A stretch of DNA of 64,000 nt, from the NCBI RefSeq assembly GCF_011682145.1, contig NZ_WHJH01000011.1:1-64000 (forward strand), in the 5' to 3' direction. Position 1 is the stretch's first letter. Each line of letters begins with the position of its first letter. The notes below the pieces were generated by a model. It saw nothing but the letters and a program-made list of their open reading frames with translations, did not search any database and was not told the DNA's origin. Position numbers and translations under genes: made by a program. Source of the DNA: Massilia mucilaginosa (GTDB taxonomy: Bacteria; Pseudomonadota; Gammaproteobacteria; Burkholderiales; Burkholderiaceae_D). Of the stretch, positions 37,823 to 45,868 are shown piece by piece.

Positions 37823-38430
37823 TCGACGGCTTGCCGATAGAACAGGTCGGCCGGTGCGCCGACTTCCGCCACTTGTCGAGCATTGACGGGATTGCGGTCG
37901 ACCTGCGCTACGCGGGGGTGGACAACTTCACCGGACGCGACCTGTATTCGCCGTTCGACTGCGCCTGGCTGCACGTCGATGCCGCTAGCGCGCTGGAACG
38001 GGTGGTGGCCTGGCTGGCGCGCGCGCGGCCCGGCTGCACCGCGCTGATCCTCGATGCGCTGCGCCCGCAGCGGGTCCAGGAAGCGCTGTGGGACGCGCTC
38101 GACGGCACCGGCCTGCGCATGTACCTGGCGCCGCCCGAGCGCGGTTCGATCCACTCCTTCGGCATGGCGCTCGACATCACCATTCTCGACGAGCACGGGC
38201 GCGAACTCGACATGGGTACGGGCTTCGACGACATGAGCGAGCGCTCCCATCCGGCGCGTGAAGACCTGCTGCTGGCGCGCGGCGAGCTGACGCCGCTGCA
38301 TGTGCAAAACCGGCAACTGCTGCGCGCCGCGATGGCGCAGGCCGGGTTTGCAGGCATTGCCAGCGAATGGTGGCATTTCGATTATGGCGACCGCGACTGG
38401 GTCAGACAAACCTTTCAGCGCGTGCTGTAA
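37819..38430 (+). CDS. ddpX: D-alanyl-D-alanine dipeptidase (VanX/DdpX family)
   Basis: A 203-residue zinc dipeptidase. The VanX motifs are present: VDLRYAGVDNFTGRDLY, ILDALRPQRVQEALW (catalytic Arg), SIHSFGMALDIT (S-x-H-x-x-G-x-A-x-D zinc site) and ASEWWHFDYG (E-x-x-W-H). It hydrolyses D-Ala-D-Ala, allowing D-alanine from wall peptides to be used; in glycopeptide-resistant bacteria the same activity gives resistance, but no vanA/H ligase or reductase is here. No signal peptide, so it acts in the cytoplasm. Confidence 0.92.
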   Translation: MIDGLPIEQVGRCADFRHLSSIDGIAVDLRYAGVDNFTGRDLYSPFDCAWLHVDAASALERVVAWLARARPGCTALILDALRPQRVQEALWDALDGTGLRMYLAPPERGSIHSFGMALDITILDEHGRELDMGTGFDDMSERSHPAREDLLLARGELTPLHVQNRQLLRAAMAQAGFAGIASEWWHFDYGDRDWVRQTFQRVL

Positions 38431-40286
38431 GGCATCGCCAGCGCGTGGCATCCCGGACTGTTACCATAAAACAATCTCAACAACGCCCGCCGCCTCTTCC
38501 CATGAATATCAGCCTGAACGACCAGATCGGCGACGCCGAAGTCATTGCCTTGTACCGCGCCAACGAATGGTCCTCCGCCGGCAAGCCCGAGCAGCTGATG
38601 GCCGCCTTGCGCAACTCGCACAGCCTGGTGACGGCGCGCGAGGATGGCGTGCTGGTCGGCATCGGCAACGCCATTTCCGACGGCCACCTGGTGGTCTACT
38701 ACCCGCATTTCCTGGTCGACCCGGCGCACCAGCGCAAAGGCATCGGGCGCCTGATGATGCAGGCGCTGTGCGCGCGCTATGCCGGTTTTCACCAGCAGAT
38801 GCTGACGGCCGACGGCGACGCGATCGCCTTCTACGAATCGCTGGGCTTCACGCGCGCCGGCCGCACCGCGCCGATGTGGATTTACGCAGGTACCGAACAC
38901 TGAGCGGACAGGGCGGCCTTCGTCAATCCAGGCTTGGGTTTCTTTCATGCCGAGCCGGTAGCGCGCACAGTTAAAATCGGCAAGGATGTTCAGTTCCTGC
39001 GTGAGCAGTTCCTGGAACCTTGCCGTGTCCTCGGCGGGCAATTCCAGTGAAGCTATTGCCTCCGCCATCGGTTGACGCCGCCGGACCACCGCTCCCACCG
39101 ATGCGCTGAGTGCTTCGCGATACTTCACGCGAAAGGGATCCGGCGCATCCAGGGCTCCCGCCACGGCCTGGTACTTGGTCTGGGAGCGCCGATAGGTCCA
39201 TTCGAAGAGGTCAACCGCCATCGACACATCGCACGCCTCATACACACCCATCATCGCCAGCGCATAGTCGTCACGGTCGACATCGAGAAACGACAGTGGC
39301 GCCTGGTTATACAGCATCAGCGGAATATTGGCGGCGATCCGGCTCACGCGCTTGTTGCCGTCCTCGAAAGCCTGGAGGTACGCCAGGTTCACCCAGAGGA
39401 AAAAGGATGCCTCCAAAGGGTTCTTGATTTGCTGCGCCTTCAGGATGATGCGCTCGAACATCTCTTCCAGCACCGCCGCGACTTGGGACGGAATATACGT
39501 GCTGCCGCTGACGTTGACTACTTGCGTGCGCATCGTGCCGAGTGACGCGGCATCAACCAGCAGATCGTGCATGAGTATGGCATGCACATTGCAAACCAGA
39601 CGGGTGTTAAGCCCTTGCAGGGGAACCGCCTCCACAATGAATTCAATGGCAGCTTTATGATTGAGCAGCATGATGGCATCGCTGTCGGTCGCGGCAGCGC
39701 CGCTTTTGAACAGCCTCTCCGTATCCATCAGGGTGTAGCGATTCCCTTCGAGACGAGAGGATGACCATGACAGGTCGATCAGCAATTGCTCCAGCACTTT
39801 ACGGGCGTAAGTCCCCGCCGGAAGCCGGCCGGGGAGGTGGCCGAGCGCAAGCAGTTCGTCCGCGAGTTCAGGAGACAGCAAGAAAGTGTCGTCGGGCTTG
39901 TAGTTGTCGACAAATTCCCGGCGATACGTGACGGGGGTACGGGCCGCCACAGGCCGTGTCAGGTGTTGCCGGAGCTGCAGGCTGGCGGCGCTCCAGCGGG
40001 GTCGCTCGTCGGTGGAGATGGCGCTGGTGGGCGTGGCTGTTGCTGTCGGTTCAGGGGCAATAGTAGCCTCGCTTGTCAGCAGGCGATATCGCGTTGCGCG
40101 GGCTTTGCCCATCATCTCGACGTGGGCGGTCGACACCAGCTTGGCCAGCATGCGCTTGATAGCATCCTTGCTTGATCCGGTGGCATCAAGCAGTTGCGAC
40201 GATGAGACCAGCTCCTTCCCACCCACGGTCATGGCAGCCATGATTTGCAGCAGATCTGCGGTGGTCAGGCGGTCGTTATAGTGCAT
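38415..40286 (-). CDS. Fic-family protein with N-terminal winged helix; 3' end lost into GNAT antisense
   Basis: The open frame is 623 codons, but only about 461 are Fic-like. It carries an N-terminal DNA-binding-like domain (about 1-70, LLDATGSSKDAIKRMLAKL), the inhibitory motif SSRLEGN (176-182) and the Fic core. The core motif reads QAFEDGNKRVSR (305-316): the catalytic His of H-x-F-x-(D/E)-G-N is Gln305, so canonical AMPylation is unlikely. Residues 462-623 are merely the antisense of the GNAT gene, because no stop follows the core. Either the gene is 3'-truncated or the tail is really made. Composition is less GC-rich than the neighbours. Confidence 0.75.
   Translation of the reverse strand: MHYNDRLTTADLLQIMAAMTVGGKELVSSSQLLDATGSSKDAIKRMLAKLVSTAHVEMMGKARATRYRLLTSEATIAPEPTATATPTSAISTDERPRWSAASLQLRQHLTRPVAARTPVTYRREFVDNYKPDDTFLLSPELADELLALGHLPGRLPAGTYARKVLEQLLIDLSWSSSRLEGNRYTLMDTERLFKSGAAATDSDAIMLLNHKAAIEFIVEAVPLQGLNTRLVCNVHAILMHDLLVDAASLGTMRTQVVNVSGSTYIPSQVAAVLEEMFERIILKAQQIKNPLEASFFLWVNLAYLQAFEDGNKRVSRIAANIPLMLYNQAPLSFLDVDRDDYALAMMGVYEACDVSMAVDLFEWTYRRSQTKYQAVAGALDAPDPFRVKYREALSASVGAVVRRRQPMAEAIASLELPAEDTARFQELLTQELNILADFNCARYRLGMKETQAWIDEGRPVRSVFGTCVNPHRRGAAGAREAQRFVEGDRVAVGRQHLLVKTGIARAQRLHHQAPDAFALVRRVDQEMRVVDHQVAVGNGVADADQHAILARRHQAVRVAQGGHQLLGLAGGGPFVGAVQGNDFGVADLVVQADIHGKRRRALLRLFYGNSPGCHALAMPYSTR
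38502..38903 (+). CDS. GNAT-family N-acetyltransferase
   Basis: A 133-residue acetyltransferase. The acetyl-CoA motif A is HFLVDPAHQRKGIGRLMMQA (R-x-K-G-I-G), followed by ADGDAIAFYESLGFTRAGR. Substrate unknown. ATG 38502 lacks a strong ribosome-binding site but begins the fold correctly. The gene lies entirely within the antisense of the extended Fic frame; its stop (TGA 38901-38903) falls exactly where Fic similarity ends. Confidence 0.87.
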   Translation: MNISLNDQIGDAEVIALYRANEWSSAGKPEQLMAALRNSHSLVTAREDGVLVGIGNAISDGHLVVYYPHFLVDPAHQRKGIGRLMMQALCARYAGFHQQMLTADGDAIAFYESLGFTRAGRTAPMWIYAGTEH

Positions 40287-40340
40287 AAATCACCTCAATA
40301 GTCTGAGTCGATTCTACCTAAACCACGCCTTGTTGGGAGT

Positions 40341-40475
40341 ATCGGTGCACTTTTTCGAAGTATTGATGCATTTTCGTCAGAATCGGTGCATTTTTTCCGA
40401 GTATCGGTGCATTTCTTTGGGAATCGGTGCAGTTTTCGGAGAATCGGTGCAATTTCGGAGAATCGGTGCGATTCA
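40341..40475. repeat. Seven direct repeats (iterons) with 20-21-bp period before the Fic gene
   Basis: The core ATCGGTGCA occurs at 40341, 40382, 40403, 40423 and 40443, with the variants ATTGATGCA at 40362 and ATCGGTGCG at 40462. Spacings are 21, 20, 21, 20, 20 and 19 bases, each followed by a T/C-rich run such as TTTTTTCCGAG. The array fills the gap between the membrane-protein stop (40480) and the Fic start (40286). Two-turn spacing places all cores on one DNA face, as in iterons or cooperative operators. There are no CRISPR-like spacers. Confidence 0.85.
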
Positions 40476-40479
40476 TGGC

Positions 40480-41154
40480 TCAGCGCATCTTAGTGCGGCG
40501 GCGCAAGGTCAGGTCGTGGTAAATCACCACCATATTGGCCGACACAAACATCGGCACCAGCGCGCACAGCACGACGGCGATCAGCGTCGCCACCACCGCT
40601 TCGACCATCCGGTTCGACAGCGACACCATGTTGACGTCGAACGCGTTGACGCAGAACACCACCGGATAGACATAGCTGAATCCGAACGCCACATGCCACC
40701 AGTGCCCGCGCACCAGGCGCAGGCTGCCCGTCAGGGCCTTGATCACCGGCAGCCCATCGACAACCAGCGCGATCCACCAGAACGACAGCGCAATGAACAA
40801 ATAGGTACCGGGCACGATGAGCATGAGCGAGCCGGTCCCGACCGCCAGCATGAACAGCGCCGCCCCCGCCAGGCACGGCAGGAAGCTGCGCAGGCCGCGC
40901 CGCAGCGCCTCGCCCGCGCTCGCCGATCGCCCGTGCGCGCTGGCGTGCACCTGAACCACCAGTGGCGCCATCAGCGCCGGGCACAGCAGCAGGAAGGCGC
41001 CGATCAGGTACAAGGCCCAGGCCTGGCCGAGGTATCCCGCCTCGCCCAGAAGGTAGCCCGTCCCGAGCAGCGCGAACAGCAGCACCATCGGCAGCAGCGC
41101 ATACGGCAGCGCGCGCGTGAAACTGGTGTAGAACAGATGCAGCGCGGCGCGCAT
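40480..41154 (-). CDS. Hypothetical integral membrane protein
   Basis: A polytopic protein of about 225-240 residues with some six hydrophobic segments (e.g. LLPMVLLFALLGTGYLLG, LVVDGLPVIKALTGSLRLV, MVEAVVATLIAVVLCALVPM) and a basic C-terminus. The 'ALTGSLRLVRGHWWHVA' segment resembles the YciC/glycerophosphodiesterase-membrane-domain type of unknown function. The start is uncertain: ATG 41154 is given, a TTG at about 41196 would add 14 residues, and longer versions would overlap dacB. Confidence 0.65.
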   Translation of the reverse strand: MRAALHLFYTSFTRALPYALLPMVLLFALLGTGYLLGEAGYLGQAWALYLIGAFLLLCPALMAPLVVQVHASAHGRSASAGEALRRGLRSFLPCLAGAALFMLAVGTGSLMLIVPGTYLFIALSFWWIALVVDGLPVIKALTGSLRLVRGHWWHVAFGFSYVYPVVFCVNAFDVNMVSLSNRMVEAVVATLIAVVLCALVPMFVSANMVVIYHDLTLRRRTKMR

Positions 41155-45791: not shown

Positions 45792-45813
45792 TGCAAGCTG
45801 CATACCGCCGCGA

Positions 45814-45868
45814 GCCATTCGGCAAGCCATTCGGCAAGCCATTCGGCAAGCCATTCGGCAGGCCATTC
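45814..45868. repeat. 12-bp tandem repeat, about 4.5 copies
   Basis: GCCATTCGGCAA is repeated at 45814, 45826 and 45838, with a fourth copy ending AG at 45850 and a partial copy at 45862 (GCCATTC). It lies in the 210-base gap between the binding protein and the TonB-dependent receptor. Repeat number could vary between strains by slippage. The rest of the gap has no recognisable gene. Confidence 0.85.

What the first reader, a model, noticed from the sequence alone, without database searches (positions are those of the whole stretch)
40341..40475. Array of seven helically phased iterons upstream of the Fic gene
Direct repeats of ATCGGTGCA with T-rich linkers recur every 19-21 bases over about 130 bases, filling the Fic promoter region. 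Phasing of two helical turns means a protein could polymerise along one face. Combined with a Fic protein that has a DNA-binding-like N-terminus and a dead active site, this may be an autoregulated system not described before. Replication iterons or phage-like operators are alternatives.
Basis: seen in the sequence. Interest (0 to 1): 0.72.

Follow-up and report, generated by a model that had tools for sequence, protein, structure and literature searches.

The report
Operator array of a self-controlling Fic protein
A row of seven short DNA repeats in front of a Fic gene is most likely the docking strip for that gene's own protein, and across related bacteria the strip and the protein's DNA-reading part tend to change together.

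Summary
The array is real: seven 9-bp sites (TGCACCGAT on the fic strand) at 19-21-bp steps, window 40341-40470, 54 bp upstream of the fic ATG; 1000 shuffles reach 4 copies at most, against 6. The protein is an N-terminal winged HTH plus a Fic domain with Gln for the catalytic His (80 of 80 aligned relatives). Sites of the form TG-NNNN-(G)AT, mostly one or two helical turns apart, lie upstream of many relatives: 52 of 79 fic loci have five or more copies of a 9-mer, against 11 of 693 other genes and 1 of 24 His-type fic genes. The core NNNN largely follows the recognition helix (GSSATVRR-AGCA 16 of 17 rows, SY[AS]TVGR-AGGA 9 of 9, SSKDA-CACC 3 of 3). Between this genome and Massilia rubra, array plus wHTH differ as one block (47-68% DNA identity inside, typically about 93% on both sides); one such two-sided case was seen. 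Pattern searches find the array only at fic in its own genome. Best reading: a solitary autorepressor with a pseudo-Fic domain. Binding, repression and the Fic domain's role are inferred. Autoregulated HTH-Fic proteins and Gln-type Fic proteins are in print; the searches named found no account of these arrays.

The parts
40341..40470 (-). operator array: seven 9-bp half-sites TGCACCGAT (two variants, TGCATCAAT and CGCACCGAT), steps 19-21 bp; + strand sites 40341-40349, 40362-40370, 40382-40390, 40403-40411, 40423-40431, 40443-40451, 40462-40470
40311..40316 (-). likely -10 box TAGAAT; GGTAGAAT is also present upstream of fic in L039, L012 and L040
   Evidence: read by eye; inference
40289..40312 (.). 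promoter-proximal degenerate inverted pair of half-sites (TGAGTCGAT on +, TGAGGTGAT on -), overlapping the -10 box, the presumed start of transcription and the presumed ribosome-binding site
   Evidence: read by eye; comparable pairs in some relatives
38904..40286 (-). fic gene, 461 codons to the point where close relatives stop; wHTH plus Fic
40080..40277 (-). coding region of the N-terminal winged HTH (residues 4-69); recognition helix residues 40-52 at 40131-40169
   Evidence: AlphaFold2 model and VIA-align; covariation
38904..39995 (-). Fic domain and C-terminal region (residues 98-461); inhibitory helix motif SSRLEGN at 39741-39761; Fic motif QAFEDGNKRVSR at 39339-39374 (Gln in place of His)
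40100..40485 (.). segment (array, promoter and wHTH) that differs as one block from the M. rubra allele, with identity of typically about 93% on both sides
   Evidence: limits read by eye from the alignment

Best explanation
The array is the operator of the adjacent gene and is read by that gene's own product. Each wHTH domain reads one 9-bp half-site TG-NNNN-GAT; sites placed one or two helical turns apart put successive protomers on one face of the DNA, so that binding can be cooperative and extend from the array into the promoter, where degenerate half-sites overlap the -10 box and the ribosome-binding site. The result would be steep autorepression of a solitary gene. The Fic domain keeps the fold and the inhibitory helix but has Gln for the catalytic His; it most likely serves as oligomerisation and nucleotide- or ligand-sensing domain. 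SHOWN by sequence: array, its recurrence and spacing, its covariation with the wHTH, its block-wise difference together with the wHTH between two alleles, its uniqueness in its own genome at the sensitivity of the pattern, the Gln. INFERRED: binding, cooperativity, repression, and the role of the Fic domain.
For: Five or more copies of a 9-mer upstream of 52 of 79 relatives versus 11 of 693 control genes and 0 of 395 shuffles. Of 243 neighbouring same-strand sites in 72 loci, 93 are 10-12 bp and 120 are 18-22 bp apart; 58 of 72 loci have a half-site starting within 40 nt of the start codon. The 4-bp core largely follows the recognition helix; partial Mantel core~wHTH given Fic 0.346, 0 of 999 permutations, against core~Fic given wHTH 0.071, 104 of 999, n=73. 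Window versus M. rubra: Fic 96%, wHTH 52% identical, cores CACC versus AGCC; DNA 47-68% identical across array and wHTH, typically about 93% on both sides. Array only at fic in its own genome (5 of 5 hits); in relatives 21 of 22 hits and 17 of 17 hits are at the fic promoter by their coordinates. His-type fic genes: 1 of 24 with five or more copies. wHTH and Fic folds predicted.
Against: No binding or expression data. Parsimony counts of core changes do not separate the trees (21 on the wHTH tree, 22 on the Fic tree). A Fic signal remains when only the recognition helix is controlled for (0.201, 1 of 999; in 31 dereplicated rows 0.358, 0 of 999). The code has exceptions (L086, L071, L080, L112, L121, L073, L076). 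A pair with the same core (L106/L118) also differs more in array and wHTH than in Fic, and the two-sided block was seen in one pair only. 27 of 79 loci have fewer than five copies, at least three of them with a broken or misplaced start. The promoter-proximal pair in the window does not match the array's CACC core. Random cores give far fewer site pairs (8-60 against 737) but a period signal of 0.48-0.63 against 0.72, so the period test is not clean. Repression rather than activation is inferred from site position only.
Confidence: 0.78

Rival explanations
1. The array is read by another host regulator, and fic is just its target.
For: Only the sequence of the sites is known; binding was not tested.
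Against: In its own genome the array was found at fic only, and nearly so in relatives; the core varies with the fic wHTH and differs together with it as one block.
Confidence: 0.07
2. Replication iterons or plasmid/phage remnants.
For: Regular direct repeats; two plasmid copies lie within about 6 kb of a replication initiation gene.
Against: No replication initiator among 9 neighbouring ORFs of the window (one ORF has no Pfam hit); no conserved neighbour gene in 76 loci and none among small ORFs; 2 distant relatives in viral contigs.
Confidence: 0.03
3. Neutral tandem duplication of a 10- or 20-bp unit, without function.
For: Some arrays (Pseudomonas, Dyella) are nearly perfect 10-bp tandem repeats, as slippage would give.
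Against: Spacing stays near one or two helical turns while linkers diverge and some units are inverted; the half-site follows the wHTH; present across genera.
Confidence: 0.04
4. Activation rather than repression: the protein bound at the array recruits RNA polymerase, or the array only titrates the protein.
For: The array lies upstream of the likely -10 box; the window's promoter-proximal sites are poor matches.
Against: 58 of 72 loci have a half-site within 40 nt of the start codon; the related HTH-Fic protein CccR is an autorepressor (PMC9755527, passages read).
Confidence: 0.15

Closest known systems
CccR of Yersinia pseudotuberculosis (PMC9755527; passages read)
   Same: Class II Fic protein fused to an HTH domain that represses its own promoter through a repeated 10-bp box.
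   Different: CccR has a C-terminal HTH, a catalytic His, and two inverted boxes 26 bp apart; here the wHTH is N-terminal, His is Gln, and the operator is a multi-copy, mostly direct-repeat array.
CbFic2 (PMC10628234; passages read)
   Same: Class II Fic with a winged HTH that binds DNA.
   Different: C-terminal HTH, Fic motif with His, studied on random DNA; no specific operator in the passages read.
Gln-type Fic/Doc clade D2 (PMC4454073; passages read)
   Same: Motif Qx[FY]x[DE][GV]NKR, His replaced by Gln.
   Different: Described there as usually single-domain proteins; no operator mentioned in the passages read.
ArdK of the KorA family (PMC9723621; abstract and outline read)
   Same: HTH repressor that binds direct repeats.
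   Different: A plasmid regulator of five genes; here one gene and arrays of up to 12 sites.
Mycobacteriophage stoperators (PMC9283540, PMC6550527; search listing only)
   Same: Many asymmetric sites read by one repressor; immunity types that differ in specificity.
   Different: Sites spread across a phage genome; here a single promoter of a solitary bacterial gene.
Sofic anti-phage protein (PMC12249575; start of abstract, two passages)
   Same: Fic protein with a defence role; the window protein matches the PADLOC SoFic model at 2.6e-14 over residues 165-329.
   Different: Sofic is described as an AMPylating toxin; the Gln of this family speaks against the same chemistry (inference).

Membership tests
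Fic/Fido fold (PF02661) | Fic domain above the curated score | tested here: met
Catalytic Fic AMPylase | HxFx[DE]GN[GK]R with the catalytic His (motif as given in PMC4454073) | tested here: not met
   Gln in 80 of 80 aligned rows, window included
Class II Fic | inhibitory helix [ST]xxxE[GN] N-terminal to the Fic core (motif recalled; CccR and CbFic2 examples) | tested here: met
   SSxLEGN in 80 of 80 aligned rows
Autoregulated HTH-Fic (CccR type) | HTH domain C-terminal to Fic and inverted operator boxes 26 bp apart | tested here: not met
   wHTH at residues 9-69 of the model; direct repeats 19-21 bp apart
Autoregulated HTH-Fic (CccR type) | binding to its own promoter and repression | not testable with these tools
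   only covariation and block-wise difference
Gln-type clade D2 of PMC4454073 | Qx[FY]x[DE][GV]NKR motif | tested here: met
   QAFEDGNKR in the window
Gln-type clade D2 of PMC4454073 | usually single-domain | tested here: not met
   wHTH plus Fic
Replication iterons | adjacent replication initiator gene | tested here: not met
   none among 9 neighbouring ORFs of the window; a replication gene lies within about 6 kb in 2 plasmid copies
Sofic-type anti-phage defence | protection against phage | not testable with these tools
   -

The most novel reading that the evidence does not exclude
The gene and its array form a solitary self-recognition module, comparable to a phage immunity region: alleles exchange array and wHTH as one cassette and become orthogonal, so that each copy is silenced only by its own kind; a newly arrived copy of another type is expressed in a burst, and the pseudo-Fic domain senses a nucleotide or a phage-made change that releases the whole array at once. 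Signs: the block-wise difference with sharp limits at one locus, different cores in 3 of the 4 genomes that hold two of the 80 named loci (L047/L049, L048/L087, L050/L117; not L085/L099), a relative without fic that keeps a hybrid array with both site types, and patchy presence (5 of 17 genus genomes).
Probability: 0.3. Interest if true: 0.85.

Novelty: new variant of a known kind. Interest (0 to 1): 0.7.

Why it matters
It offers a function, DNA-bound autoregulation, for a group of Fic proteins that lack the catalytic His; it gives a natural set of paired recognition helices and operators from which a winged-HTH reading code can be drawn; and it shows an operator and its DNA-binding domain differing as one block between two alleles of a locus, which makes the evolution of regulator specificity directly testable.

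Tried and rejected
Replication iterons and phage operators: no Rep or phage gene recognised beside fic in the window, two distant viral relatives only; the phages collection gave 18 distant hits, none covering 80% of the query. A partner gene (toxin-antitoxin): no conserved neighbour; with ORFs of 270 nt or more, 76 of 80 loci entered (count) and the largest cluster covers 9 loci (its example looks like an ABC-transporter ATPase, by eye); among ORFs of 25-89 codons within 400 nt of fic the largest cluster covers 5 of 80 loci. A regulon: not found; the patterns also missed the known fic array in 1 of 5 and 2 of 6 genomes, one pair lies elsewhere in G294, and the reversed control pattern had 4 hits in G296, so weak sites elsewhere are not excluded. 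A -10 box fused to a half-site as a family rule: only 13 of 72 loci, dropped. Core changes on trees: 21 versus 22, no discrimination. Control for the helical period with random cores: few pairs, but period signal 0.48-0.63 against 0.72, not clean. E. coli, for variation within a species: no match to an L104 query. NCBIfam has no family for the protein.

Selections: of 87 gathered loci, 7 with broken, short or doubtful N-termini were left out before the alignment of 80; 73 of these 80 passed the site-score threshold for the Mantel tests (72, where L123 was not included), and two cores (L057, L076) were reassigned by hand from the best to the second-best score. In one search, 79 of 80 loci had 240 nt upstream; loci with doubtful starts were kept in that count. 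In one search, 24 of 30 control loci were usable, and their starts were set mechanically.

Full report
OBSERVATION. The array is confirmed. Seven copies lie in register at 40332-40474 with steps of 21, 20, 21, 20, 20 and 19 bp, and they have the highest tandem-repeat scores in the window. Read on the fic strand the half-site is TGCACCGAT. In the 240 nt upstream of fic the best 9-mer has six copies with at most one mismatch; 1000 dinucleotide shuffles reach four at most, in 4 cases.

RELATIVES. 43 of 294 genomes of the family have a relative, 16 of 397 drawn from the phylum (own genome included), and 5 of 17 in the genus. A scan of genome contigs kept the best 80 of 247 confirmed matches, and three plasmid records were added. 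The upstream regions show repeats of a common frame, TG-NNNN-(G)AT, often with 10-bp or 20-bp steps. Counted without a preset motif, 52 of 79 fic upstream regions have five or more copies of a 9-mer, against 11 of 693 upstream regions of other ORFs in the same loci and 0 of 395 shuffles. Fic genes with the His motif in genomes of the same family behave like controls: 1 of 24 has five or more. Among 27 more distant relatives, 16 have GCGC as best core in the same frame, often as inverted pairs; no control was run for these.

PHASING. In 72 loci, 213 of 243 neighbouring same-strand sites are 10-12 or 18-22 bp apart, and the best common period is 10.0-10.25 bp. With random cores only 8-60 site pairs arise against 737, but they too show a period (0.48-0.63 against 0.72), probably because they fall in the same arrays; the period is therefore described, not proven. 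Neighbouring sites on opposite strands are most often 13-16 bp apart.

CODE. Sorted by the 4-bp core, the recognition helices fall into groups: GSSATVRR with AGCA in 16 of 17 rows (L086 differs), SY[AS]TVGR with AGGA in 9 of 9, [AT]SW[ST]TVKR with AGCT in 8 of 9 (L057 scored GGTT best), SSKDA with CACC in 3 of 3 (window, L012, L040), VG[KR]STIKR with GGCC in 5 of 5. Helices with SL go with AGCC in many rows but with AGCT in L071, L080, L112 and L121, and with AGCG in L073. The partial Mantel correlation of core with wHTH, given Fic, is 0.346 (0 of 999 permutations reach it), and with Fic given wHTH 0.071 (104 of 999), n=73; in 31 dereplicated rows 0.511 (0 of 999) and 0.129 (87 of 999). Residues 38, 40 and 44 are among the most informative on core positions 3 and 4, but so are 26, 33 and 68. 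Against: the number of core changes is nearly the same on both trees (21 and 22), and a Fic signal remains when only the recognition helix is controlled for (0.201; 0.358 in the dereplicated rows).

DIFFERENCE AS ONE BLOCK. The window and the M. rubra allele (L039, same locus) are 96% identical in the Fic part but 52% in the wHTH, with cores CACC and AGCC. Along the DNA, identity is mostly 82-98% up to the end of the preceding gene, 47-68% across array, promoter and wHTH, and mostly 88-100% from the end of the wing through the rest of fic. Synonymous divergence is 0.45 in the wHTH and 0.14 in Fic, which points to replacement by recombination. Three same-core pairs show no comparable drop (L106/L108, L051/L055, L104/L107; lowest bin in array or wHTH 83%), but another same-core pair, L106/L118, does differ more in array and wHTH (51-75%) than in Fic (80-90%), and L012/L040 differs in the array (65-80%) though little in the wHTH. 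A drop at both sides was seen in one pair only; in L053/L059 and L073/L063 the upstream DNA is unrelated, so only the inner limit can be seen. One relative, G111, gave no fic match but keeps an array with three CACC-type and two AGCC-type sites at the same place.

ISOLATION. A pattern for two consecutive sites hits only the window array in its own genome (5 of 5). In relatives 21 of 22 hits and 17 of 17 hits are at the fic promoter by their coordinates, although the patterns missed the fic array in 1 of 5 and 2 of 6 genomes. No neighbouring gene is conserved: the largest cluster covers 9 loci, 76 of 80 having entered, and 5 of 80 for small ORFs. At the window the neighbours include a GNAT acetyltransferase, a D-Ala-D-Ala dipeptidase, a LysR regulator, a D-Ala-D-Ala carboxypeptidase and a nucleoside-recognition-domain protein.

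MECHANISM. I take the protein to be a dedicated autorepressor: wHTH protomers fill the array on one face of the DNA and reach degenerate sites over the promoter; 58 of 72 loci have a half-site within 40 nt of the start codon. The Gln-type Fic domain probably holds the protomers together and senses a ligand. Binding and repression are inference; CccR is the nearest tested case (PMC9755527, passages read), and ArdK shows that an HTH repressor can bind direct repeats (PMC9723621, abstract and outline).

NOVELTY. Text searches in open-licence PubMed Central papers found autoregulated HTH-Fic proteins and Gln-type Fic proteins, but no account of these arrays, the code or the block difference in the listings and passages seen; subscription papers and preprints were not searched. 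I file it as a new variant of a known kind.

Noticed in passing
window 38415-38903: The window's fic frame lacks the stop codon at which close relatives end and runs on for about 160 codons antisense to the GNAT gene.
   Followed up: partly
L149 (G111) about 1345-1480: A genus relative without a fic match keeps a hybrid orphan array: three TGCACCGAT-type and two TGAGCCGAT-type sites.
   Followed up: partly
window 40289-40312; L012, L039, L040 promoters: The promoter-proximal half-sites differ in core from the upstream array (AG-type or GG-type beside CACC or AGCC), as if weaker sites were kept there or an older specificity persisted (by eye).
   Followed up: no
L179 upstream: One His-type fic gene has six ATGTATAGA sites in alternating orientation about 20 bp apart, perhaps another autoregulated Fic.
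   Followed up: no
window 45813-45868: A 12-bp unit repeated 4.7 times at 97% matches, just after the solute-binding protein gene.
   Followed up: no
L096 upstream, Dyella flagellata: Twelve half-sites of the TGGGCTGAT type, eleven of them in 10-bp steps, the highest copy number.
   Followed up: no
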